64,000 nucleotides of DNA from Phocaeicola faecium (lineage in GTDB: Bacteria > Bacteroidota > Bacteroidia > Bacteroidales > Bacteroidaceae). The stretch's first letter is position 1. Every line of letters starts with the position of its first letter. Location of the stretch: positions 1 to 64,000 of the forward strand of contig NZ_JACSPQ010000009.1 of assembly GCF_014837055.1 (NCBI RefSeq). Direction: 5' to 3'. The position numbers were made by a program, and so were the translations under genes. Below, in pieces: positions 21 to 15,155 of the stretch. The notes beneath the pieces were generated by a model. The model worked only from the letters and a program-made list of their open reading frames with translations, ran no database searches and was not told the origin of the DNA.

Positions 21-221
21 CACCGATTCGGAACTAATTCACAAAATTTGCAACGTGGTTTACCGAATGCTTACGATGTATTGATAGCTGGTAATGTCTC
101 AAAAGAAAATTCAGTACAAATTACACTCTCAGTTTCAGATTTGCCCGATAATGGAATTTACACTATAGTATTAACCAGTCCTAATCCTAATGATAGGGTA
201 TGGAGCCAATTTGAAAAATGA
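21..221 (+). pseudogene. 3' fragment of an unidentified secreted-type protein
   Basis: A reading frame is open from a stop codon at 18-20 to the TGA at 219-221 and has no plausible start. Its end (VSDLPDNGIYTIVLTSPN) looks like the beta-strand C-terminus of a small exported Bacteroidetes protein. The first bases of the window are open in a different frame with a similar low-complexity Ser/Thr/Asn composition, so a frameshift or truncation is possible. The stop overlaps the next start (ATGA). The family is not identified. Confidence 0.3.
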
Positions 222-472
222 ATGCCATGAGAATAATTTCTTTTGAAAAGCTCTGTGCCATTCATAACCAAATATACAGGCAAGGTACTGGCACACCAGA
301 AAAGTTTGCTAAGAAAGTAGGATTGTCAAAATCACAGTTAGGCAAATATCTGAACTATTTCAGATATGACTTAAAAGTGGATATCTTGTACGATAAATAC
401 CGACAAACTTATTATTATGACGGAGAAGACCTGTTCTCGGTATTGGAGACTACATTATTTCATAAGAAATAG
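218..472 (+). CDS. Small helix-turn-helix protein at the head of the peptide locus
   Basis: This 84-residue protein has a predicted HTH around residues 25-50 (TPEKFAKKVGLSKSQLGKYL) followed by a short wing-like segment rich in Tyr. Proteins of this kind often sit beside peptide-export operons in Bacteroidetes. It lies directly upstream of the ABC exporter gene but is separated from it by a strong terminator, so it is its own transcript. A role as regulator of the following peptide genes is inferred only from position. A DNA-binding function is likely from the HTH. Confidence 0.7.
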   Translation: MNAMRIISFEKLCAIHNQIYRQGTGTPEKFAKKVGLSKSQLGKYLNYFRYDLKVDILYDKYRQTYYYDGEDLFSVLETTLFHKK

Positions 473-478
473 TATACA

Positions 479-526
479 AAAATAGAAAAGCATGATAACT
501 GGACAATTATCATGCTTTTCTATTTT
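479..526 (+). terminator. Perfect 20-bp stem terminator
   Basis: The arms 479-498 and 507-526 are perfect inverted repeats with an 8-nt loop, and the right arm ends in a T-rich run. It closes the HTH gene and isolates it from the exporter operon. Confidence 0.85.
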
Positions 527-539
527 AGAATATCCTGCG

Positions 540-565
540 AGCGGATTGTAAGAATGGATATTTGC
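540..565 (+). promoter_or_regulatory. Promoter of the exporter operon with a shared AGCGGATTGTAA element
   Basis: AGCGGATTGTA begins at 540, and a TATTTG -7-like element has its TTTG at 561-564, exactly 21 bp after the start of the element. The same element with the same spacing occurs at 5661 before the second precursor gene. The exporter start codon is at 582. This is either a strong -33 region or an activator site. Confidence 0.55.
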
Positions 566-581
566 ATAAAAAATAAAAAAT

Positions 582-2780
582 ATGAAATTTCCATTTTACA
601 GACAGCTTGATGCTATGGACTGTGGTCCCACCTGCTTGCGCATGATAGCGAGATATTACGGGAAAAAATATTCCGTACAACAACTTCGCGAGAATTCCTA
701 TATCCAGCGCACAGGAGTGAATCTCCTGGGAATAAGTGAGGCAGCAGAAAGTATAGGGCTACGTACAACCGGAATACGTACGACTATAGACAAACTGAAG
801 CAGCAGTCTAAGCTGCCTTGTATCCTACACTGGAATCAGATGCACTTTGTAGTATTATATAAAGTAGAAAGATCGAAAGGGAAAACATATTTCCATATAG
901 CCGATCCGGCCTACGGTCTACTGAAGTATGAGGAAGAAGAACTGAAAAAATGCTGGATAAGTACACGCCAAGGAGGTATAGAAAAAGGCATTGCGATGCT
1001 GGTAGAAACAACACCGCAATTCTATGAAACAGAGCCGATAAGGTATGAGAAACTGTCGCTATGGTATCTGTCCCGTTATGTACGACCATACAAGAAAATG
1101 ATAATGCAACTATTTCTTGGCATACTTGGAGGCAGTATCCTACAGCTTATATTCCCATTCCTAACACAGACAATAGTGGATCAGGGTATCGGACACAGGA
1201 ACATGAGCTTCATAGAACTAATACTGGTAGCCCAGCTGATGCTTGTATTCAGCAGGACGCTGATAGAAGTAATCCGGCGATGCATACTGTTACATATAAG
1301 TACAAGAGTCAACGTAGCTCTCATATCGGATTTTCTAGTCAAACTAATGAAACTACCAATGCGTTTCTTTGACAGTAAACTTGCCGGTGACCTGATAAGG
1401 CGTATAGAAGATCACAGAACCATAGAAGTTTTTCTGACACAATCGGTATTGAATATTTTATTCTCTGTTCTGACCATAACCATTTTCGGTATTGTACTGG
1501 CCATATATAGTTGGAAAATATTCCTTGTGTTCCTGGCCTTCAGCATATTCTATATAGGATGGGTAAAACTGTTCATGAAGAAACGTGCAGACCTGAACAG
1601 AAAAAACTTTGAACAAATGGCACTGAATCAAGATAATCTGATGCAATTGGTGTATGGAATGCAGGATATCAAGCTACTTGGGTGTGAGAGGCAGAAACGA
1701 TGGGAATGGGAAAATATACAGGCTTCGTTATTTAGAATAAACCTCCGCTCGCTGAATCTTGGGCAATGGCAACAGGTTGGTGCTGTATTGATCAACGAGG
1801 TGAAAAACATACTGATAACCGTAATGTCTGCTACGGCAGTATTGAATGGTGATATAACACTTGGTATCATGCTCTCCATACAATACATTATCGGTCAAAT
1901 GCAGGGGCCTGTTGAACAGTTTGTATATTTCATGCAACAGTCACAGGATGCAACGCTGAGCTTAGAAAGGCTTGGGGAAATACATGGAAAGGAGAATGAA
2001 GAGTCTGAATCAATGCAAACGGTAAATCAAGTCTCAGGAAAAGATTCTATCTCATTAAGAGGACTACAGTTCACCTATGGTTCGGAGAAATCCAAGCGTA
2101 TCATAAAAGGCATTGATCTGGATATCCCAGCAGGAAAAACAACGGCAATTGTAGGACTGAGCGGTAGCGGAAAAACGACACTGATAAAGCTGATGCTCGG
2201 ATTCTATCCACCTACAGAGGGAAATATAATAGTCGGTGAGACACCCCTACAAAGAATCAGCTTCAAAGAATGGCGTAAACACTGTGGTGTGGTAATGCAG
2301 GAAGGATTCATATTCAGCGATACTATAGCTAATAACATAGCACCGGATGCAGATGTTATAGACCGGGAAAGGCTATTGTATGCGGTAAAGATGGCAAATA
2401 TAAAAGACTTTATAGAATCACTCCCTTTAAGGTATAATACCAGAATTGGAAGTACCGGACAAGGCTTAAGTCAAGGGCAGAAGCAACGTATACTGATCGC
2501 CAGAGCAATATACAGAAATCCGGATTACCTGTTCTTTGATGAAGCAACTAATGCCTTGGATACGGACAATGAAAAAACAATACAGGAGAATCTAAATCAG
2601 TTCTTTGAGGACAAGACTGTTGTCGTAGTGGCGCACCGCCTTAGTACAGTGAGAAATGCAGACCAGATAGTAGTATTGAAAGACGGAGTAATCACCGAGA
2701 AAGGAAATCATGAATCATTGATTTCAAAGCAAGGAGACTACTATAGACTGGTGAAGAATCAGTTGGAACTTAATGCGTAA
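582..2780 (+). CDS. Peptidase-containing ABC transporter (C39 bacteriocin-type exporter)
   Basis: This 732-residue inner-membrane protein cleaves double-glycine leaders and exports the mature peptide. Residues 1-130 form the C39 peptidase, with catalytic Cys14 in DAMDCGPTC, His88 and Asp108. A hydrophobic transmembrane domain covers roughly residues 160-440. The C-terminal ATPase has Walker A GLSGSGKTTL near residue 526, signature LSQGQKQR near 629 and Walker B YLFFDEAT near 649. The length is normal for the family. It is followed after 6 bp by the HlyD-type adaptor, and three GG-leader precursors lie in the same locus, so it is the probable exporter for all of them. Confidence 0.93.
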   Translation: MKFPFYRQLDAMDCGPTCLRMIARYYGKKYSVQQLRENSYIQRTGVNLLGISEAAESIGLRTTGIRTTIDKLKQQSKLPCILHWNQMHFVVLYKVERSKGKTYFHIADPAYGLLKYEEEELKKCWISTRQGGIEKGIAMLVETTPQFYETEPIRYEKLSLWYLSRYVRPYKKMIMQLFLGILGGSILQLIFPFLTQTIVDQGIGHRNMSFIELILVAQLMLVFSRTLIEVIRRCILLHISTRVNVALISDFLVKLMKLPMRFFDSKLAGDLIRRIEDHRTIEVFLTQSVLNILFSVLTITIFGIVLAIYSWKIFLVFLAFSIFYIGWVKLFMKKRADLNRKNFEQMALNQDNLMQLVYGMQDIKLLGCERQKRWEWENIQASLFRINLRSLNLGQWQQVGAVLINEVKNILITVMSATAVLNGDITLGIMLSIQYIIGQMQGPVEQFVYFMQQSQDATLSLERLGEIHGKENEESESMQTVNQVSGKDSISLRGLQFTYGSEKSKRIIKGIDLDIPAGKTTAIVGLSGSGKTTLIKLMLGFYPPTEGNIIVGETPLQRISFKEWRKHCGVVMQEGFIFSDTIANNIAPDADVIDRERLLYAVKMANIKDFIESLPLRYNTRIGSTGQGLSQGQKQRILIARAIYRNPDYLFFDEATNALDTDNEKTIQENLNQFFEDKTVVVVAHRLSTVRNADQIVVLKDGVITEKGNHESLISKQGDYYRLVKNQLELNA

Positions 2781-2786
2781 ATCAAT

Positions 2787-3929
2787 ATGAAAGAAGAAAC
2801 TGATGAAAAGAAGCAACCTGCGGGTGAGAACATAGAGCTATATTCGCGAGAGAGTTCGAGTGATATGCTTGGTGACATGCCAAACTGGCTGATTCATACA
2901 GGTAGCTATATCGTGTATGGTCTTATAATAGTGTTACTAGCAGGAAGTTATGTATTCAAGTACCCGGATGTAGTTACAACAGATATATCTATTGATGACT
3001 TTTCAAAAACAGAGTGGATAATGGCCAATGAAGATGGGATAATCGATGATTTCTTTGTAACAGATGGGGAAAAAGTAAAGAGAAATGACACCTTAGGTAT
3101 AATACGTAATACGGCATCTCTCGGTGATGTAAAAAAGTTCTGCAAGGTATTGACACGTGTCGAGTGGTTCTATAGGACAGACGATCCTTCGCTTCTTGAT
3201 GACTATCCGTTTGATCTGATTATGGGAGAAATGTCTTCCTCGTATGAGCAATTCACGGAAGCTGTACGTGCCAATGTCTTTGCCAGTAAATACAATGCGT
3301 ATGATTATAGAAGGAATTATCTCAAACAAGAAATAAGAATACTGATGAAAGACTCAACTAATAATGAACTTGCAATCCTGAATGCAAGAAGAAACTTGTT
3401 TGAAATGGAACTGGAACATAAAATGGAAACAGCCAAAAACAAGAGATTACTTGAACTGGCATACGAAAGAATGGTAAACAGCCTGAAATCGTGGGAGAAC
3501 AGATATCTAATAAAAAGTACAAACGATGGAAGAGTACTGCTGGGAAAAGGCTGGAGCATAAACAACCGTGTAGCTGTAGGTGATACAATCTGTTCGGTTA
3601 TATCAGAATATAAAGGGCATCCTAAAGGTCATATTAAACTAAACCAACATCAAGTGGCTGATATAGCCCAAGGAGATAAGGTAAACATTGAATTATCAAA
3701 ATACCCAACGCACACGTATGGATATCTGATAGGTGAAGTGAGTTCCGTGACCTATGTTCCTTCAAGTAAGAATTATGCTGTTGAAGTGGAACTAACTAAT
3801 GGAATGTATACAACTTCAAAATATGAAATTGATTATGAAGTAGGATTAGCTGGTCAGGCAGAAATAGTCACTTCAAGCCGTAGTATATTGAGCAGAATCT
3901 TTGGTCCGATCTATCAACTTTTAAAATAA
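2787..3929 (+). CDS. HlyD-family membrane fusion protein
   Basis: This 380-residue adaptor links the ABC exporter to an outer-membrane channel. A single membrane segment lies near residues 33-53 (IVYGLIIVLLAGSYVFKYP). After it come a lipoyl/barrel half (EDGIIDDFFVTDGEKVKRND), a helical hairpin near residues 180-230 and a second barrel half. It starts 6 bp after the exporter and ends 7 bp before the first precursor gene, so it is part of the same operon. No TolC-like partner is encoded in the window. Confidence 0.85.
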   Translation: MKEETDEKKQPAGENIELYSRESSSDMLGDMPNWLIHTGSYIVYGLIIVLLAGSYVFKYPDVVTTDISIDDFSKTEWIMANEDGIIDDFFVTDGEKVKRNDTLGIIRNTASLGDVKKFCKVLTRVEWFYRTDDPSLLDDYPFDLIMGEMSSSYEQFTEAVRANVFASKYNAYDYRRNYLKQEIRILMKDSTNNELAILNARRNLFEMELEHKMETAKNKRLLELAYERMVNSLKSWENRYLIKSTNDGRVLLGKGWSINNRVAVGDTICSVISEYKGHPKGHIKLNQHQVADIAQGDKVNIELSKYPTHTYGYLIGEVSSVTYVPSSKNYAVEVELTNGMYTTSKYEIDYEVGLAGQAEIVTSSRSILSRIFGPIYQLLK

Positions 3930-3936
3930 TAACATT

Positions 3937-4158
3937 ATGGAAAAGAAAAGCAAACGCATGAAAAACAAGGCTATAAACGCCTTAGAAAGAAACAATCACT
4001 CAAGTATACATGACGATGAAATGTTAGGACTGGATGAGTTATTCGGTGTTCAGGGTGGTGTTGACCGTGATAAAGAACAGGAGCATGTGGAAGAATCCTG
4101 TGGTTTAGGATGTTTTGGCAGAAATATTGTAATAAAAAAGACAAATGACAAACAATGA
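3937..4158 (+). CDS. GG-leader precursor peptide 1
   Basis: This 73-residue peptide has a charged leader ending in LFGVQGG (Gly40-Gly41) and a predicted 32-residue core with two cysteines in ESCGLGCFGR (Cys55 and Cys59). The leader fits cleavage by the C39 exporter encoded upstream. It lies 7 bp after the adaptor gene, and its last 14 bp overlap the next maturase gene, so the two are probably translationally coupled. The class is inferred from leader and neighbours. The modification on the core cannot be read from sequence. Confidence 0.8.
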   Translation: MEKKSKRMKNKAINALERNNHSSIHDDEMLGLDELFGVQGGVDRDKEQEHVEESCGLGCFGRNIVIKKTNDKQ

Positions 4159-5635
4159 CATATACATATTGAATCCACATTATCACCTTCGGAATGATAC
4201 GAGACGTATTCTTTTGTTTTCTAAGTTCCATACTAATGGAAAAAGTTCAAACAACTGGTACGGTTTCATTCATCCATTACAAGCCATAATGCTTGGATTT
4301 TTTACCTATAAGCGAAACTTGAAAGAGAATATCACGCTTTTAAGTCAATATTTCCATCGTACAGAATCTGAAATAGAACGCTATGTTATCCCGTTTATAA
4401 ATAATGATAAATTGTTGAGTACACATTGGCATAACACAGAAATAATATTCCCCAAGAATGTGTTGGTAAAAGCATCACAAAACGATACATATTTAGCACT
4501 TTCTCCTGACAGTTTTATTTGTCATGATTTAGATCTTATTAGTCGAAGATTATATAACGCACCATTGTCAATAACTTTAATGTTAACGAACAGGTGTGTA
4601 ACTCACTGTAATTACTGCTATGCTGATACACATACCAGAATTATGAATAGACTATCAACAGAACGTATATGTGAATTAATAGAAGAAGCAGGAAAACTTC
4701 AGATGAAAAGCGTCAATCTTATAGGTGGTGAGATTTTTTTACATCCTGATTGGGCATTGATATTAAAGAAAACTGTTGATTATAAAGTAGAAACTGAGTA
4801 TATATCCACCAAAATGCCTTTAACTTCTAATATAATAGATGCTCTATTATGGACAGGATATAAAGGTATTATACAGATATCCTTAGATTCATTAAATAGT
4901 GATGTATTAAAATCATCCTTGAATGTAGGTAATGATTATCTGAAATCTGTTATAAATGGTATAATGCTATTGGATGACAGCGGATTAAAATTTCAAGTAT
5001 CAACGGTCTTGACAACGTATAATTCAGATATAAAGATAATGACTGAATTATTCAGTTTCCTTTCAAAACTTAAAAATATTACAACATGGAATATCGTTAC
5101 TGTACATGATTCATTAAATTCTCAATTAAAAGATTTCCATTCATTAAAACCTTCTCATGAGCAACTGAATAAGCTATTTGAGGAACTAAAAGAAACTGTT
5201 AAATACTCGAAGATTAATGTCGCAATAGACGAAAACACATTGAACAAGGAATACTATTCTGACCAAGGAGGAAGTAAATATTTTAAAGGGAATAAATGTT
5301 CGGCTTTAAGTATGCAGTTTTTCATATTGCCTGATGGAAAGGTAACCATTTGCGAGCAACTTTACTGGCATCCATATTTTATCATAGGAGATGTATGCAA
5401 TAACAGTTTGAGCAGCGTTTGGAATTCTAAACGAGCAAAATTTTTGGCATATAGAGCCTGGAATGATATCCGTCCAACAAGTAAATGTTACGAATGCACA
5501 TTGAATAAAGAATGTTTTGAGCACAATAACCGTTGTTGGGTAGATATTATGAAAGCATACGGAAAAGATAATTATGATTACCCTGACCCAAGATGTGAGT
5601 TTGCGGATAAAATGAAAAATTATATTGGATATTGA
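4145..5635 (+). CDS. Radical SAM/SPASM peptide maturase 1
   Basis: This 496-residue enzyme has the radical SAM cluster motif CVTHCNYC at Cys151, Cys155 and Cys158. The C-terminal SPASM region, from about residue 385, is rich in cysteines (CSALSM, CEQLYW, KCYECTLNKEC). The first roughly 140 residues resemble the leader-recognition region seen before such domains. It overlaps precursor 1, which is its likely substrate. The usual chemistry is radical formation of a carbon-carbon, ether or thioether link in the core; which one is not predictable here. Codons are strongly AT-rich compared with the exporter. Confidence 0.88.
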   Translation: MTNNDIYILNPHYHLRNDTRRILLFSKFHTNGKSSNNWYGFIHPLQAIMLGFFTYKRNLKENITLLSQYFHRTESEIERYVIPFINNDKLLSTHWHNTEIIFPKNVLVKASQNDTYLALSPDSFICHDLDLISRRLYNAPLSITLMLTNRCVTHCNYCYADTHTRIMNRLSTERICELIEEAGKLQMKSVNLIGGEIFLHPDWALILKKTVDYKVETEYISTKMPLTSNIIDALLWTGYKGIIQISLDSLNSDVLKSSLNVGNDYLKSVINGIMLLDDSGLKFQVSTVLTTYNSDIKIMTELFSFLSKLKNITTWNIVTVHDSLNSQLKDFHSLKPSHEQLNKLFEELKETVKYSKINVAIDENTLNKEYYSDQGGSKYFKGNKCSALSMQFFILPDGKVTICEQLYWHPYFIIGDVCNNSLSSVWNSKRAKFLAYRAWNDIRPTSKCYECTLNKECFEHNNRCWVDIMKAYGKDNYDYPDPRCEFADKMKNYIGY

Positions 5636-5660
5636 TTATGTTTTGGGAGAAACTCTTAGT

Positions 5661-5685
5661 AGCGGATTGTAAAGGTGTACATTTG
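5661..5685 (+). promoter_or_regulatory. Promoter of precursor 2 with the shared AGCGGATTGTAA element
   Basis: AGCGGATTGTAA is at 5661-5672 and the -7 element TACATTTG is at 5678-5685. The TTTG starts 21 bp after the start of the element, exactly as in the promoter at 540. The start codon of precursor 2 follows 46 bp later at 5732. Confidence 0.65.
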
Positions 5686-5731
5686 TTTTGTGATAGACAA
5701 ACTATTATAATAATTTTAAAACTGAGGTATT

Positions 5732-5899
5732 ATGGAAAATTTGAATCAAAAAAAGGTTAAAGAAGAAAATGATTTAAAGAAAGAAGAAATTGTTCCTGCA
5801 GAAGATGTACTTACAAATGAGATGGAAGAAGAAGTTGAAGGTGGTAAACTTAACATTTGTATTTCTGGAAAGCTTGCTCTTGAAGATGCGAAAAGATAA
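5732..5899 (+). CDS. GG-leader precursor peptide 2 (55 residues)
   Basis: This short gene encodes MENLNQKKVKEEN through a leader very rich in Glu and Lys that ends EMEEEVEGG (Gly37-Gly38). The predicted 17-residue core is KLNICISGKLALEDAKR, with a single cysteine. The leader end closely resembles that of precursor 3 (EKEQLEGG). It has its own promoter and is followed by a hairpin before the second maturase gene, an arrangement that would give more precursor than enzyme. It is easy to miss because of its size. Confidence 0.8.
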   Translation: MENLNQKKVKEENDLKKEEIVPAEDVLTNEMEEEVEGGKLNICISGKLALEDAKR

Positions 5900-5932
5900 G
5901 AGGAGCCTCGTTAAAAGTTATAGCTAATATGC

Positions 5933-5962
5933 GAAGGTGCATCAAAAGATGTACCTTCTTTC
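5933..5962 (+). terminator. Attenuator-like terminator between precursor 2 and maturase 2
   Basis: The arms 5933-5943 and 5948-5958 pair over 11 bp with one G-U and an AAAA loop, followed by a T-rich run. Since no separate promoter is evident before the maturase at 5988, it probably works as a partial terminator. Confidence 0.75.
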
Positions 5963-5987
5963 TTATTAATTATTGATTTATGGGCTT

Positions 5988-7298
5988 ATGAAATGGTCAC
6001 AATTTAATTTCCTTTTCTATTCAAAGAAAATAGGTTATTATCTTCATAATACAAGAATGTTATCCTTAATAAAATTGGATAAAGAAAGTTATGACAAACT
6101 TTTGAAAATTCGTAAAAATCCTGATCGTGCAAAGTTTCTACTGAGTGAAACAGATTATACGTATTTTGTTAATGCAAAAGTTCTTGTATCGGAGCAAGAG
6201 GATAGTAATTATATAGAAAAAATGGAATATAAAAAGCGTAAAGATTCCTTTGCATCCACTTCGTTAGGCTTGGTTTTATGTCCAACATTGGCATGTAATT
6301 TTGCGTGCCCTTATTGTTATGAAAAAAAATTACCTACTAATGTTATGTCGGAGGTTGTTCAATCTCAATTGGTTAATTTTATCAACAAATATGTAGGTAA
6401 GTGTAAGTCTATAACTTTAGATTGGCATGGTGGAGAACCTCTTCTTGCATTTGAGACTATCAAACAAATATATTCTAAATTTGAGAGCGAATCTAAACTA
6501 CCAATATCATCATCTTCCATGGTTTCAAATGGATACCTTTTAAATGAGGATATTTGTAGTTATCTTGCATCTAAAAAACTAAATTATTTACAAATTACGA
6601 TTGATGGTAATAAATTTACTCACAATAAAACCCGCGTCTTAAAAAATGGGGGATCTTCTTTTGAGAAGATTGTTGAAAATATTGATATGGCTTTGGAACT
6701 AATGCCTAATTGTTGCATTGGTGTTAGGACTAATATTGGATTATTAAATAAAGATGAATATGTAGACCTTTATAATGAACTGTCAGAAAGGTGGAAAGAT
6801 AAAAACTGTTCTATTTATCATTCTTTTATCGTTGATAATAGCTATTATTCTAACTGCAATAAACAATGTTCACAGGAATTATCAACCAAAGAGAAAAATG
6901 ATTTTATGGTAAATTTAGCCCAAAATGGTATAGTTAAGAAAAAATTTATCTATCCTCAAAGAGATTGTAGTTTATATACTTGTACAAATAACAATTCATT
7001 TGTAATAGATCCTTTGGGATATTTATATAAATGTTGGGCAGATGTTGGTATACACGAACGTTCTGTTGGAAATTTGGTAAATGGAATTACTAATTATGAT
7101 ATTTTTTCCAGATTTATGGTTGGTTCCGATAAGTTTGCTGACGCTAATTGCCGTAAATGTACTTATTTACCTATATGTAATGGTGGATGTAATCTTTCTA
7201 GGGTTAGATCGTTGGAACGTAAAGTGCCATATAATAATTGTTCAATAGATAGTGAAGGCTTGACAAAATATCTAGAGACTTTTTTAGAAATGCGTTAA
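5988..7298 (+). CDS. Radical SAM/SPASM peptide maturase 2
   Basis: This 436-residue enzyme has the cluster motif CNFACPYC (Cys103, Cys107, Cys110). A SPASM C-terminus has cysteine-rich segments CSLYTC, KCWADVG and CRKCTYLPICNGGC. The ATG at 5988 was chosen over a TTG at 5973 because the resulting N-terminus MKWSQFNFLFYSKKIGYYLH aligns with maturase 3. The length is normal for SPASM peptide maturases. It sits downstream of precursor 2, its likely substrate, and is followed 10 bp later by an outer-membrane receptor gene. Codon use is AT-rich. Confidence 0.88.
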   Translation: MKWSQFNFLFYSKKIGYYLHNTRMLSLIKLDKESYDKLLKIRKNPDRAKFLLSETDYTYFVNAKVLVSEQEDSNYIEKMEYKKRKDSFASTSLGLVLCPTLACNFACPYCYEKKLPTNVMSEVVQSQLVNFINKYVGKCKSITLDWHGGEPLLAFETIKQIYSKFESESKLPISSSSMVSNGYLLNEDICSYLASKKLNYLQITIDGNKFTHNKTRVLKNGGSSFEKIVENIDMALELMPNCCIGVRTNIGLLNKDEYVDLYNELSERWKDKNCSIYHSFIVDNSYYSNCNKQCSQELSTKEKNDFMVNLAQNGIVKKKFIYPQRDCSLYTCTNNNSFVIDPLGYLYKCWADVGIHERSVGNLVNGITNYDIFSRFMVGSDKFADANCRKCTYLPICNGGCNLSRVRSLERKVPYNNCSIDSEGLTKYLETFLEMR

Positions 7299-7308
7299 AA
7301 ATTGAAAT

Positions 7309-9618
7309 ATGAGAAAGTTAGTTACATTATTGGTATTATTATTCAATACATTTATAATTAAGGCTCAGAGTATTTCAGGTTCTTTAATTGATGAGAGTGG
7401 AAATCCTATAAGTTTTGCCAATGTTGTGTTATTGAATCGTTGTGATTCTTCTTTTGTTCAAGGAACGATAAGTGATGAAAATGGAAACTTTAGTATAGGA
7501 CCATTTACTGATGAAAATATACTTAGAGTTTCATGTCTTGGTTTTTTACCAATAACAAAAGCTCATACAAATTCTCCGGTAACTATTGTGATGCAAGAAG
7601 ATATTAATCTATTGAGTGAAGTTGTTGTTAATGGTAATTTACCTGTGACCCGCATGAAAGGTGATGCTATGGTGACAAATGTGGAGAACAGTGTGTTGAG
7701 CAAGGCTGGTTCTGCCAATGATGTATTGACCAAAATACCGGGTATTACCAAAAAGCAGGATGCATTTGAGGTTTTCGGGAAAGGAACACCTCTTATATAT
7801 ATAAACGGCAGAAAACTGCATGACTTATCTGAGCTTGAGCAACTTAACTCTGATGAAATCAAGAATGTACAGGTTATCCGTAATCCCGGTTCAAGATATG
7901 ACGCAACCGTAAAAGCTGTTGTCCGTATTCAAACGGTTAAACGTCAAGGGGATGGTTTCGGATTCAATTTGCGCTCCAGCTATTATCAGTCGAAGAATAC
8001 GGATTTGATAGAACAGGCAAACTTCAATTACCGGCATGATAATTTGGATATTTTCGGTTCTATATATTATAATCAGATGGAAAGCTGGCAGGATTTCAGT
8101 ATGAAACTGGAAGAAAGAGGAACAAAAGTTTGGAATCATGATATGAAGAGCAATGGCGAGTTTTATTCAAAGATGCTAAACGGCAATGTCGGATTCAATT
8201 ATCAGCTGAATGACAATCATGCTTTCGGTATGAAATATAAGGCAGGAAAGACCCTGAATGAAGAAAATCCGCTTTCTAAAGAAACCGATATAAATGTTGA
8301 CAATGTATTCTACGACAACATAAAGGTAAACAGTTGTGATTACTATCATTACGATCCCGACCATGAACTGAATGCATACTATAACGGACAATTCGGAGAT
8401 ATGAATCTCGATTTCAATGCCGATTATCTTCAGAATGGCAAGCGTAGCAACTCCGTATTTCAGGAAACCAGCCAGACTTCGGAAAGCCGTGATGTTCATT
8501 CTGCCAATCGTGTAAAGAACCGGCTTGTGGCAGGAAAGCTGACTTTGTCACTCCCATTGGGTGGAGGTGCTTTTGCCGTGGGCAGTGAAGTAACCTATAC
8601 CCATAGAAATGACGACTATTTGAACGAAGAAAACTACGTGCCGTCTTCATTCAGTAAGATTGAGGAACTCAATGCTGCCGGATATGCGGAGTATAACCAC
8701 AGTTTTCCGTGGGGTGACTGGTCGCTTGGATTGAGGTATGAGCATGTCAAGTTTGACTATTATGAAGATGGCAAGCATGTGGACGAACAAAGCCGTACAT
8801 TTGATAACTTCTTTCCGAATATTTCATTCTCAACTCAATTGGGAAAAGTGCAGACACAGTTGAGCTACACGGCAAAAACCCAACGACCGACTTACAGCGA
8901 GTTGAGTAACAATATATTTTATTCAGACCGATTTACCCTTCAAAAAGGCAATCCCACACTTCGTCCTACCATTATACACGACCTGACACTTTCCGGTGTC
9001 TGGAGATTCCTACAGATATCATTGTCCTACTCTCAGACAAAGGACTGGATTCTTAATTGGGGAGAACTGGTAAATGAAGATGCCTCACTGACCATGCTGA
9101 GTCAACGCAACTGGGATAAGTCTGTTCCTATGTTTGCCGCATTTCTGTCCGCCTCCCCTAAAATCGGGTGCTGGTCTCCTATGCTGGGTATTGGTATGCA
9201 AAAGCAGTGGCTTACCATAGATTTTTTTAAGGAATCGAAAACTTTGGATAATCCCCTATTTACCGCTTCATTCAATAATACTTGGGAATTGCCACTTGGC
9301 TTTATGTTAGGTCTTGATTCATATATACAGAGTGCAGGTGCTACACAGAATATTTATTTTGAAAAACCGAACGGCTATGTGAACGTGTCGCTCAGAAAGA
9401 GTTTCTTGAATGATGCTTTGAGTGTTGAATTAAGAGGCAATGACATTTTCAATACGAATAAGATAAGCTATAGCATGTATAGCGGTGACTATTATCTGTA
9501 TCAAAAAAGCGTATGGGACAGACAGGAGTTTGCGGTGACAGTCCGTTACAAACTTAATGCAGCAAAGAGCAAGTACAAGGGAACGGGAGCCGGAAACAGC
9601 CAAAAGAGCCGTATGTAA
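7309..9618 (+). CDS. TonB-receptor-like outer membrane beta-barrel protein 1
   Basis: This 769-residue protein has a signal peptide (cleavage likely after FNTFIIKAQ). A carboxypeptidase-regulatory-like fold follows near residues 21-100 (GSLIDESGNPISFANVVLL), then a plug-like region near 105-210 (DVLTKIPGITKK, YINGRKL) and a long barrel to the end. The family (OMP_b-brl_3 type) is built like SusC/TonB-dependent receptors. It is downstream of maturase 2 in the same transcript, so it may bind or take up the peptide or serve immunity. Base composition seems to shift from AT-rich to more GC-rich at about 7660. Confidence 0.8.
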   Translation: MRKLVTLLVLLFNTFIIKAQSISGSLIDESGNPISFANVVLLNRCDSSFVQGTISDENGNFSIGPFTDENILRVSCLGFLPITKAHTNSPVTIVMQEDINLLSEVVVNGNLPVTRMKGDAMVTNVENSVLSKAGSANDVLTKIPGITKKQDAFEVFGKGTPLIYINGRKLHDLSELEQLNSDEIKNVQVIRNPGSRYDATVKAVVRIQTVKRQGDGFGFNLRSSYYQSKNTDLIEQANFNYRHDNLDIFGSIYYNQMESWQDFSMKLEERGTKVWNHDMKSNGEFYSKMLNGNVGFNYQLNDNHAFGMKYKAGKTLNEENPLSKETDINVDNVFYDNIKVNSCDYYHYDPDHELNAYYNGQFGDMNLDFNADYLQNGKRSNSVFQETSQTSESRDVHSANRVKNRLVAGKLTLSLPLGGGAFAVGSEVTYTHRNDDYLNEENYVPSSFSKIEELNAAGYAEYNHSFPWGDWSLGLRYEHVKFDYYEDGKHVDEQSRTFDNFFPNISFSTQLGKVQTQLSYTAKTQRPTYSELSNNIFYSDRFTLQKGNPTLRPTIIHDLTLSGVWRFLQISLSYSQTKDWILNWGELVNEDASLTMLSQRNWDKSVPMFAAFLSASPKIGCWSPMLGIGMQKQWLTIDFFKESKTLDNPLFTASFNNTWELPLGFMLGLDSYIQSAGATQNIYFEKPNGYVNVSLRKSFLNDALSVELRGNDIFNTNKISYSMYSGDYYLYQKSVWDRQEFAVTVRYKLNAAKSKYKGTGAGNSQKSRM

Positions 9619-9637
9619 ATTGATTAAGACTGTAAAA

Positions 9638-11965
9638 ATGAGAACTATCAGAACGTTATTAATATTGGTTTGTACACTTATTTCAGTTAGTGTATCGGCA
9701 CAAACCATAAGTGGAAAACTGATTGACGAGAACAGCCAGCCGTTGCCCTACGCCAATGTGGTGCTGCTGTCATTGCCGGATTCGGTATTTGTGGATGGGG
9801 CTACTTCGGACGACAAAGGAAACTTTATCCTGAAGGATTTATCTTCCCGAAGCTACCTGTTGCAGGTTTCATACATAGGTTACCAGCCGCAGTCCATACT
9901 ATTAGAAAATCTGGATCGGAAAATAAACTTAGGAGATATCCGGTTGGTGCAGGACGCCGTGGCTTTAAAAGGCGTAACGGTAACAGGCAGTAATGTGGTG
10001 GAAAAAATAGACCGGCAGATTGTCATCCCTTCTTCCAGACAGATCAAAGCGGCTACGTCCGGTTATGAGTTGCTGGGTCACATGCAGCTTCCGGGGCTGA
10101 AGGTGAACAGTATGGAAAGAAGTATTTCGACCGTAAGCGGAGGACGTGTGCAGTTGAGAATCAACGATATTGAAGCATCTACCGCACAGGTCCAAGCTCT
10201 GAGACCAGACGAGGTGCTGAGGGTAGAATACATTGACAATCCGGATATGCGGTATGCCAATACGGATGTGGAAGCCGTCATCAACTTTGTAGTGAAGCGC
10301 AGGGAGTCGGGCGTTGCGGGAGGATTCAATCTGACCAATGCCGTTACGACCGGTTTCGGCAATGACAATGTGTATATCAAGGTCAATCATAAGCTGTCGG
10401 AGTTCGGTTTCAACTACTATGTGAGCTATCGTGACTATAATGACCGTTTTGTGGATGAGGACCAGTCTTTCAGCCTTCCGGATGGAAACCGCAACCGTTA
10501 TCTGAAAGGTATAACTACTCCTTTCAATTACGCCGACCATTACCTGGAGTTGAATTATAATCTGACCAAACCGGAAAGATATGTATTCAATGCCTCTTTC
10601 ACGGACAATATTTTCCGTTCTCCCCATAACGATTACGGTCAGATTATCCGGGAGGAAGGCAAAAACGACATCTATAGTTTTACAAAGAAAATCAATAATT
10701 CCAATTCACCTTCCTTGGACCTGTATGGAAAAGTGTCGCTACCCAAGAAGCAGGAATTCCTACTGAATGTGGTAGGGACCTATATCAGTTCCGACTTTGA
10801 ACGGAACTACAATGAAGCGCTCAGCGAAGGAGGCACTCCATATTCTGAATACATCTACAGTACGGATGGAAAAAGATATTCATTGATTGGTGAAGGTATT
10901 TACAAGAAGAACTTCAAGGACGTGGCTTTAAGCGGCGGGTTGAAATACACGCTGGCGTACACCCATAATAAGTACAAGGGTGACGTAAACCAGACGGATG
11001 GGATGCACAGTTCGGACTTGTACGGTTATGTGCAGGTGAATGGAAAATGGAAGAAACTAAGCTACCTATTGGGCGTAGGCCTTTCAAGGCAAAGCTATGA
11101 TGAATCCGGAAAAGGGTATTCGTTCTATATGTTCCGCCCTTCGGTCTCATTATCCTACAAACTGTTTGAAGGAGCGACTCTTAAATATGTGTTTTCCAGC
11201 ACACCGAATGTGCCGTCGCTGTCATCACTCAGTGACATCCGTCAGCAGCTTACGGATATAGAGGTCAACCGTGGTAATCCCAATCTGAAGCCATACCGTT
11301 CTTACAGCAATACGCTTCAGCTTTCATGGGGAAACAAATGGGTGGACTTGCAGCTGAAAGGAGGCTATTATTTCAGCAAGAATCCAATCATGGAAGAGGT
11401 AAGCAGGGTGTCACAGCAAGACGGCAGCTATCTGTTCGAGTATGGTGTGGATAACCAAGACCGTTTTTCAAGGTTGAACGGGCAGCTCTATGCCAATGTG
11501 GACATTGTTCCTGATATGCTTTCACTCAGTCTCTATGGTGGTGTGAACAGATACGAGTCGAAAGGAAATGCCTATCTGCATACCTTCAACGCATGGTATG
11601 GTGGCGGCAATTTGTCATTCACTTATAAAAAGTTCTCGGCTTATGCGGTTGTCTCCAGCCGTTATAACACCTTGTTCGGTGAAACGGTCAGTTACGGTGA
11701 GAAAAACTGTATGCTTCAATGTTCATACAAAATCAAGCACTTCAATGTGGGTGCCGGTATGCTTTATCCCTTTAAGCCCAAAGGATGGAGCGGTGGCACG
11801 AAATTGCTGAGCAATGAGGTGCGGAAAGAAACTTGGTCTTTCATAAAGGATAACGGAAACATGTTCCTGCTCACTCTGTCATGGGATTTCAGTGTGGGAA
11901 AGAAACACCATGCAGGAACCAAGACCACGAACAATGTAGACCGGGAAACTGGTATTGTTATGTAA
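9638..11965 (+). CDS. TonB-receptor-like outer membrane beta-barrel protein 2
   Basis: This 775-residue protein is a second member of the same family as its neighbour. The ATG at 9638 was chosen because it gives a clean signal peptide (MRTIRTLLILVCTLISVSVS, then AQ). An upstream in-frame ATG at 9557 lies inside the previous gene. A regulatory-like domain (GKLIDENSQPLPYANVVLL) and a plug-like region precede the barrel. It starts 19 bp after the previous stop, so the two are one operon. Two different barrels may form a pair or recognise different peptides. Confidence 0.82.
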   Translation: MRTIRTLLILVCTLISVSVSAQTISGKLIDENSQPLPYANVVLLSLPDSVFVDGATSDDKGNFILKDLSSRSYLLQVSYIGYQPQSILLENLDRKINLGDIRLVQDAVALKGVTVTGSNVVEKIDRQIVIPSSRQIKAATSGYELLGHMQLPGLKVNSMERSISTVSGGRVQLRINDIEASTAQVQALRPDEVLRVEYIDNPDMRYANTDVEAVINFVVKRRESGVAGGFNLTNAVTTGFGNDNVYIKVNHKLSEFGFNYYVSYRDYNDRFVDEDQSFSLPDGNRNRYLKGITTPFNYADHYLELNYNLTKPERYVFNASFTDNIFRSPHNDYGQIIREEGKNDIYSFTKKINNSNSPSLDLYGKVSLPKKQEFLLNVVGTYISSDFERNYNEALSEGGTPYSEYIYSTDGKRYSLIGEGIYKKNFKDVALSGGLKYTLAYTHNKYKGDVNQTDGMHSSDLYGYVQVNGKWKKLSYLLGVGLSRQSYDESGKGYSFYMFRPSVSLSYKLFEGATLKYVFSSTPNVPSLSSLSDIRQQLTDIEVNRGNPNLKPYRSYSNTLQLSWGNKWVDLQLKGGYYFSKNPIMEEVSRVSQQDGSYLFEYGVDNQDRFSRLNGQLYANVDIVPDMLSLSLYGGVNRYESKGNAYLHTFNAWYGGGNLSFTYKKFSAYAVVSSRYNTLFGETVSYGEKNCMLQCSYKIKHFNVGAGMLYPFKPKGWSGGTKLLSNEVRKETWSFIKDNGNMFLLTLSWDFSVGKKHHAGTKTTNNVDRETGIVM

Positions 11966-11991
11966 CACTATCTCCAAAAATATATTTTAAT

Positions 11992-12048
11992 ACAGAATCC
12001 CCTTATTCCCCTAATAGTAAATCAACAAAGGGTAATAGAGGATTCTGT
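11992..12048 (+). terminator. Hairpin after the receptor genes
   Basis: The arms ACAGAATCC (11992-12000) and GGATTCTGT (12040-12048) pair perfectly around a partly paired interior. It lies 27 bp after the last receptor gene, before the oppositely oriented maturase 3. There is no clear T-run. Confidence 0.5.
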
Positions 12049-12218
12049 ATGGCTTTATACCTTAATTCGCGTTTTTAAGCAAAATCTTATTCTCTCTTAG
12101 ATTATTTTATCGAAATTCAATTGCTTTTGAATTTGATGAGCCTTGATGATTTATGGTTTGTAGTAATATAGTATCTGAATGATAAACAGCTAAGTATTTA
12201 AGATTGATTGAATTTTGA

Positions 12219-13520
12219 TTAAATATTTAAATGACTCCAATAGAGTTTCTCAATAACAATTCTTTTAGCATGTTCCATTTTCTGGGCGTTAGTACCATAA
12301 AAACAATAATCAGCATCTACTTCTTTTCTTTTTTGATAACAGCCTCTGTTACATATTGGAAAAATCGAACAAGACAAGCATCCCGTACTATTCTGAATAT
12401 ATTCTTTTTCCAATTCTTTTCTTAGCCATTGGATTGTTCCATTCTCCAAAAGAATTCCCTCATTAGGGGATGTTGAAAAGTTTCTTGCCGTACATTTAAA
12501 CACACGAGCATCGTAGTTTACTATAAACTGATTTTTCTTATCGGCATAACAAGGATTAAAAATTGTATTTGGACATGAATCTGGAGTTACGCATATATAA
12601 TTATGTTCTCTAAGTTTAGAAACAATCTCATCAACTTTGGTTAATACCTCCAGCTTGTCTGAATCTTGCCAGACTGCATGAATCGAGAATCTTAGATTTT
12701 GAATTTCATTTTTTGCCAAACCACTAAAATCAGATATAATTTCTTGATAAATAATTTCCGTCTTTTGAGATATATTATATCTAACAGAAACCTCAAATCC
12801 CTTTTTAAGGCATAACTTGATGTTCTGTAGTATTTGATCGTAAGTATTATGGTTCCCTTTAAGAAATTTCACCTTATTGTGACTCATCCTATTACCATCT
12901 AGGGTTATTTGAAATCGTTTTACATGATGCTCTTGACAAAAATCCAAGAACTTTTCTGTAATTAAATAACCGTTTGTTGTAAAGTTCGAAACTACATTTA
13001 CGTTAGAATTCTTAGTTATTTCTTGCAAGTCAGAAAGGAAAGTATATATAATGTCTTTATACATAAGAGGCTCTCCTCCAAACCAGTCTATTCTAATATT
13101 TTTCAATTCACTATTTGTGTCAAATTCTATTTTTATATACTTGATAATACTTTGAATAGTAGCAGCAGATATTTTACTTTTTCTAACATGTGTTTCGTAA
13201 CAGTACCAACAATTGAAGTTACAATTTAAAGTTGGATTTATGATAATATAAAGTAAAGATTTGTCACCTTTGCTTCGTTTTAATATATCATCGATAATTG
13301 AACTTTCATCAATATTTTCATCAATAATAAATTTATTGTCTGACAATAAATTATTGATCTTTTCACTGTATAACGCTGCCATACTCAGGTTTAGGAAAAA
13401 CTTTTCTTTTAACAATCCATACACTTCAGGTGTCAATGTTAGACAAGTATTGTAAAGTGTATTATAACCAATTATCTTATGGTTATATTCAAAAAAAGTA
13501 TTATATTTACTATCTTTCAT
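12219..13520 (-). CDS. Radical SAM/SPASM peptide maturase 3
   Basis: This 433-residue enzyme has the radical SAM cluster motif CNFNCWYC about 100 residues from the start. Its C-terminal SPASM cysteines include CLSCSIFPICNRGC. The start at 13520 (MKDSKYNTFFEYNHKIIGYN) was chosen because it aligns with the start of maturase 2; in-frame ATGs also exist at 13526 and 13559. It lies downstream of precursor 3 on the same strand with a 69-bp gap and is probably its dedicated enzyme. Confidence 0.87.
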   Translation of the reverse strand: MKDSKYNTFFEYNHKIIGYNTLYNTCLTLTPEVYGLLKEKFFLNLSMAALYSEKINNLLSDNKFIIDENIDESSIIDDILKRSKGDKSLLYIIINPTLNCNFNCWYCYETHVRKSKISAATIQSIIKYIKIEFDTNSELKNIRIDWFGGEPLMYKDIIYTFLSDLQEITKNSNVNVVSNFTTNGYLITEKFLDFCQEHHVKRFQITLDGNRMSHNKVKFLKGNHNTYDQILQNIKLCLKKGFEVSVRYNISQKTEIIYQEIISDFSGLAKNEIQNLRFSIHAVWQDSDKLEVLTKVDEIVSKLREHNYICVTPDSCPNTIFNPCYADKKNQFIVNYDARVFKCTARNFSTSPNEGILLENGTIQWLRKELEKEYIQNSTGCLSCSIFPICNRGCYQKRKEVDADYCFYGTNAQKMEHAKRIVIEKLYWSHLNI

Positions 13521-13589
13521 ATTCATAGAAAAAAGGGAAGGACATTCTATCCCTCCCATGATTAAATTACATAATAAATTCAGTAAAAA

Positions 13590-13805
13590 TCAACACCCGT
13601 GGCAATTGACGATGTTTATATCTGGATTCTGGGTATTTGAAGTTAAATCTTCAGCTTTCACACCTCCTTCCAACTGTTCCTTCTCTTGCTCTGTAAGTTT
13701 TTCTTCCTTGAGTGCATCATTTTCTTCTCTCACATCTTTTTTCTGTGTAGATTCTTCTGGTTTCATTTTTTCAAATTTTAAATTAAACAATAATTTCTTT
13801 GACAT
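13590..13805 (-). CDS. GG-leader precursor peptide 3
   Basis: This 71-residue peptide begins MSKKLLFNLKFEKMKPEE, a start typical of Bacteroidetes GG-leader peptides. The charged leader ends EKEQLEGG (Gly47-Gly48). The predicted 23-residue core ends with a Cys-His-Gly-Cys motif (NIVNCHGC). The start at 13805 was chosen over an upstream codon at 13904 that lies at the promoter. It is the first gene of a minus-strand unit with maturase 3. No exporter is encoded with it, so it probably uses the C39 exporter at 582. Confidence 0.8.
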   Translation of the reverse strand: MSKKLLFNLKFEKMKPEESTQKKDVREENDALKEEKLTEQEKEQLEGGVKAEDLTSNTQNPDINIVNCHGC

Positions 13806-13892
13806 AGCAAATGTACAAACAGAGAATCCGCTAGTAAGAGTTTTGAAGTTTCTTCTGATTACATTTTTATTTATATGAATATCAGGATGTTG

Positions 13893-13900
13893 CAAAGTTA
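13893..13900 (-). promoter_or_regulatory. Promoter -7 element of precursor 3
   Basis: On the minus strand TAACTTTG matches the Bacteroides -7 consensus and lies about 90 bp before the start codon at 13805. Two more ACTTTGA repeats directly upstream can supply the -33 TTTG. Confidence 0.6.
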
Positions 13901-14180: not shown

Positions 14181-15155
14181 TCATAATAAGTAGAAATTCA
14201 TTGATTTCACAATTCTTACATACAACCTTAAAAACACATCCTGACACATCTTTACATCCGGAAAATAAACAAACGATTTCCGAGCAAAAGAGAGACAAGC
14301 AAACGGTCTGATATCACAAGCATCCATATCCGGATAACGCTTCTTTATCTGTTCGGAAACCGTTTTATTCAATGCAGCCACAAGGTTAGCCAAGCGGATA
14401 GGATTCCATTGCAACATTTCTAAAATGACCATTCCATCTCTCTTTTCAACGATTACGGCATAATCATCCTGCACATTACGGACATAATAACATATAAAAT
14501 CAAAGGCTTCAGATACCTCATCCCCTACATGAATGCCGATGATACGCTTTTCTTTCTCCACAGAGGAAAAGCACTTTTCTATCTGCTTCAGCACGTAACC
14601 GCATACAACGGGAGAAGAAGAAGCCAACAGGTAAGCCGGTGCATCCGGTTCTCCCCCCTTTTCAATGGAGTGGAACACACAAGGATTCCAACACAAGTGG
14701 ATGACGCTGCCCTGACAATCCCCATGCAAAGAAGCGGCACAGTTCCTATTGTTAAACAACAGACGAGATTCTTTTTTCTCCAGATCGAACTGGAAAAGGT
14801 TTCTAACTTTATCCGCTTTTGCCAAATCATACAGCAGGTACCCCTGCAAACCGGAAGTATGGCGAATTTTCGCACAACCTTGACTTTCCTCCACATCAAA
14901 CAAATAATCAATGATCTGTTCCTTCGTACAGCTTGCGGAAAAGGAAAACTCATCTTGTTCGTCTTTGGGCTGAAAGGTCAGCAACAAGGCCAACTGCATG
15001 GGGCTTATCTCTGAGAAGTTATACAATTCGATGCAGGAGACCACATCCTTTTTCGGAGAGAACAGCACATATCCCCTGCCGTTTATCTTATACCTTAACA
15101 TAAAATCTCCCTGCTCGATGGGCAGGTAATCATTTAGAATAGTACGGTAATTCAT
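14181..15155 (-). CDS. Unknown protein downstream of the relaxase
   Basis: This 324-residue soluble protein belongs to no family that I can name. It follows the relaxase gene by 32 bp on the same strand, so it is probably co-transcribed with it. A central segment (VIHLCWNPCVFHSIEKGG) followed about 50 residues later by RIIGIHVGDEVSEAFDFI has the order of a degenerate Toprim-like fold, but this is weak. Cysteines are unusually frequent. A role in mobilisation or DNA processing is inferred only from position. Confidence 0.6.
   Translation of the reverse strand: MNYRTILNDYLPIEQGDFMLRYKINGRGYVLFSPKKDVVSCIELYNFSEISPMQLALLLTFQPKDEQDEFSFSASCTKEQIIDYLFDVEESQGCAKIRHTSGLQGYLLYDLAKADKVRNLFQFDLEKKESRLLFNNRNCAASLHGDCQGSVIHLCWNPCVFHSIEKGGEPDAPAYLLASSSPVVCGYVLKQIEKCFSSVEKEKRIIGIHVGDEVSEAFDFICYYVRNVQDDYAVIVEKRDGMVILEMLQWNPIRLANLVAALNKTVSEQIKKRYPDMDACDIRPFACLSFARKSFVYFPDVKMCQDVFLRLYVRIVKSMNFYLL

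What the first reader, a model, noticed from the sequence alone, without database searches (positions are those of the whole stretch)
582..13900. One C39 exporter and three GG-leader precursors, each with its own radical SAM maturase
Seen: three small genes (3937-4158, 5732-5899, 13590-13805) end their leaders in GG and each lies beside a radical SAM/SPASM gene. Only one C39-peptidase transporter is present. Known: C39 exporters remove GG leaders. Inferred: one exporter handles three different cores (32, 17 and 23 residues, with 2, 1 and 2 cysteines), giving a mixed set of modified peptides. Cores and order look unlike well-studied RiPP classes.
Basis: partly seen in the sequence, partly recalled or inferred. 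Interest (0 to 1): 0.85.

Follow-up and report, generated by a model that had tools for sequence, protein, structure and literature searches.

The report
Three-peptide RiPP locus sharing one exporter
A gut Bacteroidales bacterium carries three different small peptides, each beside its own peptide-modifying enzyme, with a single cutting exporter; a DNA switch in front of the exporter and of the two add-on peptides suggests that they are turned on together.

Summary
Confirmed and extended. Window 582-13766 holds one C39 exporter (the only Peptidase_C39 match in the genome), a HlyD-like adaptor, three GG-leader precursors (A1-A3), three radical SAM maturases and two PF14905 outer-membrane barrels. 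A3 most likely starts at 13766, not 13805.

A1 belongs to a conserved family: core motif CGLGC[FY], intact beside the rSAM1 homologue in 19 of 79 named loci. A2 and A3 have weaker support: short shared core patterns in one distant relative each. A related locus shows the same plan with other cassettes.

New here: a promoter pattern, CGGA[TC]T-N9-[TG]AnnTTTG, occurs three times in the 64 kb, before the exporter, A2 and A3 only. In 26 loci, window included, a relaxed form gives 22 sites at spacing 9 against 0-4 at other spacings. In 17 of 21 sites an upstream half-site completes a dyad. A small winged-helix gene (218-472) co-occurs with the cluster. Maturases without a CGLGC precursor are followed by a barrel in 16 of 21 cases; CGLGC maturases in 0 of 20.

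The kind (GG-leader, radical SAM, PCAT clusters in Bacteroidales) is published; the cassette regulon is the new variant. Cleavage, chemistry and activity are untested.

The parts
218..472 (+). HTH84: small winged-helix protein, candidate regulator
   Evidence: Homologues in 17 of 20 named loci with a CGLGC precursor, L091 included; in 8 of 8 genus genomes with a CGLGC-clade rSAM1 and 1 of 53 others; model pLDDT 87.7, three helices plus a two-strand wing; weak best folds (E 0.02) are winged-helix regulators
531..564 (+). Promoter-like site before the exporter: TATCC-N7-GGATT, N9, GATATTTG
582..2780 (+). C39-peptidase ABC exporter (PCAT)
   Evidence: Pfam PF03412/PF00664/PF00005; sole PF03412 match in the genome
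2787..3929 (+). HlyD-like membrane fusion protein
   Evidence: TIGR01843 E 6e-18, below cut-off; syntenic in relatives
3937..4158 (+). Precursor A1; core VDRDKEQEHVEESCGLGCFGRNIVIKKTNDKQ
   Evidence: CGLGC[FY] family beside rSAM1
4145..5635 (+). rSAM1, radical SAM/SPASM maturase with N-terminal RRE-like domain
5652..5685 (+). Promoter-like site before A2
   Evidence: no clear left half-site
5732..5899 (+). Precursor A2; core KLNICISGKLALEDAKR
   Evidence: C-[IV]-[ST]-G-[KQ]-[IL] shared with two of three tandem precursors beside the rSAM2 relative L112
5973..7298 (+). rSAM2, radical SAM/SPASM maturase
   Evidence: PF04055, TIGR04085 53 bits; order-level relatives
7309..9618 (+). OMP1, PF14905 outer-membrane barrel with CarboxypepD_reg and plug
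   Evidence: Plug below cut-off; starts 11 bases after rSAM2
9557..11965 (+). OMP2, second PF14905 barrel
   Evidence: 60% identical relative in L026
12219..13559 (-). rSAM3, radical SAM maturase
   Evidence: PF04055; 46% identical relative in L107
13590..13766 (-). Precursor A3 (corrected start); core VKAEDLTSNTQNPDINIVNCHGC
   Evidence: Core and leader resemble the precursor beside an rSAM3 relative (30% identical) in G640
13808..13841 (-). Promoter-like site before A3
   Evidence: no clear left half-site

Best explanation
This is a modular RiPP locus of a Phocaeicola-type Bacteroidales. A constant module (HTH84 regulator, C39 exporter, HlyD adaptor, precursor A1, maturase rSAM1) is combined with exchangeable cassettes, each a GG-leader precursor, its own radical SAM maturase and usually a PF14905 outer-membrane barrel (here A2-rSAM2-OMP1/OMP2 and A3-rSAM3). 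A dimeric winged-helix regulator, most likely HTH84, binds a dyad just upstream of the -7 element of the exporter operon, of A2 and of A3, so that the exporter and all cargo are switched on together. Each maturase recognises its leader (rSAM1 through an RRE-like domain) and installs a cysteine-anchored cross-link, probably a thioether, in its own core. The single C39 exporter cuts every leader after GG and exports the cores. The most likely use is antagonism or communication among close relatives, with each barrel serving the matching peptide as receptor or immunity partner. Shown by sequence: the parts, A1's conservation, different cassettes beside a near-identical exporter, the promoter pattern, a single C39 exporter. 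Inferred: regulator identity and binding, cross-link type, cleavage, activity, role of the barrels.
For: Single Peptidase_C39 match in the genome. CGLGC[FY] precursor intact beside rSAM1 in 19 of 79 named loci, 18 of the 24 with at least 43% identity, plus L091 out of frame. rSAM1 model spans SuiB including the N-terminal domain. A2's CISGKL matches two of three tandem precursors beside the nearest rSAM2 relative, followed by a barrel and a C39 exporter. An A3-like core beside an rSAM3 relative turned up at a site of the strict promoter pattern. B. caecigallinarum L033/L018 keeps the exporter at 97% protein identity but carries other cassettes, again three precursor-maturase pairs. Promoter: 3 of 3 window sites before cluster units; in 26 clade loci 22 sites at spacing 9 against 0-4 at 11 other spacings, no peak in 54 other loci; half-site at spacer 7 or 9 in 17 of 21 sites, shuffle mean 0.7, maximum 5. 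HTH84 in 8 of 8 genus genomes with a CGLGC-clade rSAM1 and 1 of 53 others. Intact maturases without a CGLGC precursor have a same-strand barrel as next recognised gene within 400 bp in 16 of 21, CGLGC maturases in 0 of 20.
Against: No experiment. The window's A2 and A3 sites and both L042 sites lack a clear left half-site. 13 of 26 clade loci have no site of this pattern, a fourteenth (L043) has one that is not before a cluster gene, and P. vulgatus (L035) has one before an accessory precursor but none before its exporter. The pattern was drawn from about seven of the sites later counted, and spacers 7 and 9 were chosen after looking. rSAM2 and rSAM3 have only distant relatives (38%; 46%); the shared A2 pattern is six residues in two peptides; A3's core is not conserved in its closest maturase relative, L107. 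Window rSAM3 itself is not followed by a same-strand barrel; in L036 and L038 a barrel does lie 0.7-0.8 kb after the CGLGC maturase, behind a small C39-like gene. In P. sartorii (L091) A1 is out of frame and rSAM1 interrupted. HTH84 binding to the dyad is guilt by association only; three of seven genome-wide pattern sites are unexplained.
Confidence: 0.6

Rival explanations
1. The constant CGLGC peptide is mainly a signal (pheromone) for the HTH84/TPR regulatory genes, and only the accessory cassettes make effectors.
For: CGLGC is invariant among intact A1 relatives while accessory cores vary; CGLGC maturases are never directly followed by a barrel (0 of 20); TPR-like genes stand upstream of HTH84 in the 5 loci picked (L018's match is below the Pfam cut-offs).
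Against: No sensor for an exported peptide is identified; TPR proteins are large families; the window's own TPR gene, if any, lies beyond the contig end.
Confidence: 0.25
2. The PF14905 barrels are the outer-membrane exit of the exporter instead of TolC, not receptors or immunity partners.
For: Order precursor-rSAM-barrel-C39 recurs in distant Bacteroidota; no TolC-type domain among the cluster proteins scanned; PMC10352776 counts an OMP among transport genes of such clusters.
Against: Barrels have CarboxypepD_reg and (in OMP1, below cut-off) plug matches of TonB-dependent receptor type. Barrel genes with the same promoter and no radical SAM match in the stretches examined exist (G055 C17, G000 C10; precursors were not searched systematically there). 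20 of 20 CGLGC maturases have no barrel directly after them.
Confidence: 0.25
3. A2 and A3 cassettes are relics or passengers of a mobile region and are not made.
For: Conjugation genes follow at about 15-36 kb; A2 and A3 lack close relatives; broken copies of related genes exist elsewhere (L091; the L042 accessory precursor and maturase).
Against: All three precursors and maturases are open; both cassettes keep an exact-spacing promoter site; GG precursors beside other maturases recur in many of the loci.
Confidence: 0.13
4. The common promoter merely reflects duplication of one cassette, not shared control.
For: A2 and A3 upstream regions match at 16 of 17 positions in this genome.
Against: The exporter site and sites in other loci differ in flanks but keep spacing 9 and show paired changes in the two half-sites.
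Confidence: 0.08

Closest known systems
Bacteroidales GG-motif radical SAM/PCAT BGCs, notably BGC2 of Phocaeicola vulgatus (PMC10352776; abstract, sections 13, 14, 16 and found passages seen; figures and supplements not seen)
   Same: Radical SAM as only modifying enzyme class, PCAT, MFP, an OMP not in tandem with them, a TPR gene, GG precursor. The P. vulgatus ATCC 8482 locus L035/L020 is homologous to the window's constant module.
   Different: In the parts seen: no shared promoter, no HTH84, no CGLGC family, no cassette exchange. That L035 is BGC2 is my inference.
SuiB/streptide and SkfB type RRE-radical SAM-SPASM maturases
   Same: Near full-length fold match of rSAM1, N-terminal domain included.
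   Different: About 13-16% identity; the A1 core has no Trp for a Lys-Trp link (that link recalled); product unknown.
PapB/Clo7bot/CefB/TIGR04463 peptide maturases
   Same: rSAM2 and rSAM3 score best with these and related profiles.
   Different: 105-189 bits against cut-offs of 340-600.
Thuricin CD (PMC12093266; title and start of abstract in the search listing only)
   Same: Two precursor peptides and two radical SAM enzymes in one system.
   Different: A two-component sactibiotic; here three dissimilar cores, three maturases, a HlyD adaptor and barrels.
Bacteroidetocins (PMC6671954, start of abstract in the search listing only; leader and PCAT as told in PMC10352776)
   Same: Bacteroidales peptides with predicted GG leader and PCAT.
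   Different: Unmodified, related to class IIa bacteriocins.

Membership tests
GG-leader radical SAM RiPP cluster exported by a PCAT (Bacteroidales) | C39-peptidase ABC exporter | tested here: met
   single match in genome
GG-leader radical SAM RiPP cluster exported by a PCAT (Bacteroidales) | GG-leader precursor next to a radical SAM gene, conserved in relatives | tested here: met
   A1: (19 of 79). A2, A3: one relative each, weaker
GG-leader radical SAM RiPP cluster exported by a PCAT (Bacteroidales) | Leader cut after GG and modified core released | not testable with these tools
   needs mass spectrometry
SPASM-domain peptide maturases (rSAM1, rSAM2) | Radical SAM core plus SPASM domain | tested here: met
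   rSAM1: PF13186; CX3CX2C plus six invariant and one nearly invariant further cysteines in 62 aligned sequences. rSAM2: TIGR04085 53 bits over cut-off 27
SPASM-domain peptide maturases (rSAM3) | SPASM domain | tested here: inconclusive
   No SPASM model among the 25 of 49 rows shown, no PF13186 match
TIGR04149-type and other curated NCBIfam precursor families | Precursor matches the family model | tested here: not met
   A1, A2, A3: no NCBIfam family reported up to E 10 (HMMER filters drop most weak matches)
Known radical SAM RiPP equivalogs (PapB, CefB, Clo7bot, TIGR04463, CXXX-repeat TIGR04115) | Score above curated cut-off | tested here: not met
   All three maturases below every equivalog cut-off in the rows shown; TIGR04115 55-56 bits of 350 for rSAM2 and rSAM3, not among rSAM1's rows; 25 rows per protein shown
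Streptide (SuiB) class | Lys-Trp cross-link motif in the core (recalled) | tested here: not met
   A1, A2 and A3 cores contain no Trp
NHLP or TIGR01193 bacteriocin exporter models | Score above curated cut-off | tested here: not met
   441.7 of 853.3 and 383.3 of 523.85 bits; Pfam Peptidase_C39 is met

The most novel reading that the evidence does not exclude
A plug-in RiPP regulon: one constant exporter-regulator-CGLGC module serves interchangeable precursor-maturase-barrel cassettes that join the system simply by carrying the same dyad promoter; unlinked barrel genes with that promoter but no maturase act as stand-alone receptor or immunity genes, and the constant CGLGC peptide is the common signal or core product.
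Probability: 0.35. Interest if true: 0.78.

Novelty: new variant of a known kind. Interest (0 to 1): 0.58.

Why it matters
The constant module has a homologue in P. vulgatus ATCC 8482, a common human gut species, and the products are unknown. The promoter and the CGLGC motif give sequence handles for finding such cassettes without relying on enzyme similarity: the strict promoter pattern led to a precursor-maturase cassette and to a barrel gene in other genomes. If the cassettes truly plug into one exporter and one regulator, this is a natural system for swapping modified peptides, testable by simple gene removals, and it makes the role of PF14905 barrels in peptide clusters testable.

Tried and rejected
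TIGR04149-like membership: rejected, no NCBIfam match for the precursors. Start of A3 at 13805: rejected because the promoter-like site ends at 13808. Plasmid copy: megablast of 582-13766 against the plasmid collection gave no match. Integrase on contig C11: none of 23 matches in the genome lies there, so 'ICE' was not concluded; only conjugation genes are reported. An exact 16-base form of the shared element was too narrow (126 of 129 loci without a match, the other three being this genome's own) and was replaced by the spacing-9 pattern. In one search my identity list was one entry short, so its printed identities slip towards the end and the script stopped at L111; identities are taken, and one search covers L111. 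The automatic precursor caller found a precursor in 36 of 80 loci, at least two of them doubtful (L045, L079; left in its 'rest' group) and missed L042 and L047, known. Precursor calling around rSAM2 and rSAM3 relatives gave a regex hit in 18 of 47 short loci, several of them spurious. Literature searches listed no paper on the CGLGC family or this promoter; none of the five listed held 'CGLGC'; preprints and most subscription journals are not held. The VIA-align list is a second look at Foldseek matches; families absent from it are not excluded.
Full report
WHAT IS THERE. The window is the first 64 kb of contig C11 (77,014 bases) of a 3.48 Mb genome. From 582 to 13766 lie a C39 exporter, a HlyD-like adaptor, precursor A1, rSAM1, precursor A2, rSAM2, two PF14905 barrels and, on the other strand, rSAM3 with precursor A3. 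C39, HlyD, A1 and rSAM1 are nearly contiguous (gaps of 6 and 7 bases; A1 and rSAM1 overlap). From about 15 kb follow a relaxase, a NikA-like protein, a ParA-like ATPase, TraG, TraM, DUF4138, ArdC and a coupling protein, so the cluster sits beside conjugation genes; no Phage_integrase match lies on this contig.

ONE EXPORTER. Peptidase_C39 has one match in the whole genome, the gene at 582. If the three peptides leave through a C39 exporter, it has to be this one.

A2 AND A3. rSAM2 has matches in 18 of 393 order genomes, own included, at E 1e-45; the best other is 38% identical. Beside that one three tandem GG precursors end in NIHCVTGKIK, NLYCVTGQLK and DFYCDAGIIR, to be compared with A2's LNICISGKLA: C-[IV]-[ST]-G-[KQ]-[IL] holds for the first two. 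A barrel and a C39 exporter follow. rSAM3 has matches in 33 of 301 family genomes, own included, at E 1e-35. Its closest relative seen, in L107, is 46% identical; the precursor there shares the leader style but not the core. A precursor in G640, VKAIDEQKMNPAEGGLGCDCGC, next to a 30% identical rSAM3 relative, resembles A3, VKAEDLTSNTQNPDINIVNCHGC. Both are thus probably members of wider precursor-maturase groups with fast-changing cores, but each rests on one relative.

CASSETTE EXCHANGE. In B. caecigallinarum (L033 = L018) the exporter protein is 97% identical and the DNA 86% identical over window 76-3930. Then colinearity ends: its next cassette is different, the CGLGC pair comes later at 63% identity, and a third pair follows. 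It too has one exporter and three precursor-maturase pairs on its contig. In other loci the accessory pairs differ in kind (rSAM1-like, rSAM2-like, rSAM3-like). One search asked for the next recognised gene (seven profiles) after each maturase. Of 21 intact maturases without a CGLGC precursor, 16 have a same-strand PF14905 barrel within 400 bp (17 of 22 with the frame-broken L042 gene); the misses are window rSAM3 (its barrel neighbour is convergent), L040, L043 (second), L045 (second) and L048. Of 20 CGLGC maturases none has a barrel next; in L036 and L038 one lies 0.7-0.8 kb on, behind a small C39-like gene. Fragments in L035, L036, L042, L074, L083 and L091 were left out, and L018 stands for L033.

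A SHARED PROMOTER. The upstream regions of A2 and A3 share ACTCTTA(G/C)TAGCGGATT, the only exact matches in the genome. A related site stands before C39. The common form is CGGA[TC]T-N9-[TG]AnnTTTG; TAnnTTTG is the Bacteroides -7 element (recalled). The 64 kb window has exactly three such sites, before C39, A2 and A3; over the window and 79 loci spacing 9 gives 13 sites, 11 of them before cluster genes (not those in L043 and L067), and other spacings 4-15 give 0-4. Genome-wide there are 7 sites (1 for the pattern read backwards): these three, one before a barrel on contig C10 next to a second HTH84 gene, and three not studied. With the first positions relaxed, 26 clade loci (window's first 20 kb included) give 22 sites at spacing 9 against 0-4 at each of 11 other spacings; 54 other loci show no peak (5 at spacing 9, 0-10 elsewhere). 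Twenty-one of the 22 stand before cluster genes: three exporters, three A1 genes, one barrel, one large gene in L087 (taken for a TPR gene by size and position, not scanned), and 13 accessory or own precursors, one of which (L042) has an interrupted frame. Thirteen of the 26 loci have no site. Leaving out the L043 site, 17 of 21 carry a matching half-site 7 or 9 bases upstream (2000 shuffles: mean 0.7, maximum 5), with both AGTCC..GGACT and AATCC..GGATT pairs. The window's A2 and A3 sites and the two L042 sites do not. The pattern was noticed on about seven of these sites and the spacers after looking, so the counts are not fully independent. A more independent look is the strict pattern AGTCC-N9-GGACT-N9-TAnnTTTG in 399 family genomes: 6 sites in 5 genomes (1 for the pattern read backwards). 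One is the P. vulgatus accessory cassette; one is the same place in the unnamed close relative G008, where no GG precursor was read; one is the G640 cassette, whose locus also holds the exporter, HTH84 and a CGLGC precursor; one stands before a barrel (G055 C17); two in G533 lie on contigs that hold an HTH84 relative (37%) or a C39 exporter (39%), before small proteins without a GG leader.

REGULATOR. HTH84 (218-472) has homologues in 17 of the 20 named CGLGC loci, L091 counted (missing in L047, L074, L107). It occurs in 8 of the 8 genus genomes with an rSAM1 of the CGLGC clade (47% or more; G026 broken; in G008 the precursor rests on an A1 match) and in 1 of the 53 others, G041, where no cluster gene was seen on its 6 kb contig (hypergeometric 3e-9). 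Its model is a winged helix whose weak best matches are regulators of ArsR, MarR and related types (best E 0.02). TPR-like genes stand upstream of HTH84 in the 5 loci picked for a Pfam scan, in L018 below the cut-offs. The window's contig begins too late to show one.

MECHANISM. Most likely HTH84 activates the exporter operon and the cassettes together; each maturase cross-links its own core through cysteine; the C39 domain cuts after GG; the barrels serve individual accessory peptides. These steps are inferred from sequence patterns and family knowledge. Signal against toxin, and receptor against exit for the barrels, stay open.

KNOWN OR NEW. Fernandez-Cantos et al. (PMC10352776) reported GG-precursor, radical SAM, PCAT clusters in Bacteroidales and a P. 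vulgatus cluster (BGC2) with PCAT, MFP, a separate OMP and a TPR gene (abstract, sections 13, 14, 16 and passages seen). The window's constant module is homologous to a P. vulgatus locus, so the kind is known. The CGLGC family, the cassette layout, the dyad promoter, HTH84 and the barrel pairing were not found in the listings of seven searches or in the parts of that paper seen.

Noticed in passing
L172 6087-9106 (G000 contig C10, about 52.1-55.1 kb): The same genome has a second HTH84 gene (82% identical), divergent from a promoter site and a PF14905-type barrel (OMP1 relative) that reads in two overlapping frames; no radical SAM match in the 16 kb stretch.
   Followed up: partly
L020 10103-10648, L075 11502-12062 and others: In 7 of 20 CGLGC loci a small C39-like gene starts within 13 bases of the maturase end. 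In the two read it seems by eye to lack the DCG cysteine and the histidine of the exporter domain, so it may be a non-cutting leader binder. None was found in the window.
   Followed up: partly
L091 (Phocaeicola sartorii): The A1 homologue is out of frame at CGLGC and rSAM1 is interrupted: decay or assembly error.
   Followed up: no
L053, L054, L059: A sister group has precursors with repeats of the CTVSGSGT type and the order precursor-rSAM-barrel-C39.
   Followed up: no
L051 9129-9918 (Ancylomarina): Three very similar tandem GG precursors before one maturase.
   Followed up: no
window 14181-15155 (-): 324-aa protein without any Pfam match between the cluster and the relaxase.
   Followed up: partly
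L180 and L181 (genome G533): Two further sites of the dyad promoter in another genus of the family, on contigs with an HTH84 relative or a C39 exporter, before small secreted-looking proteins without a GG leader.
   Followed up: partly
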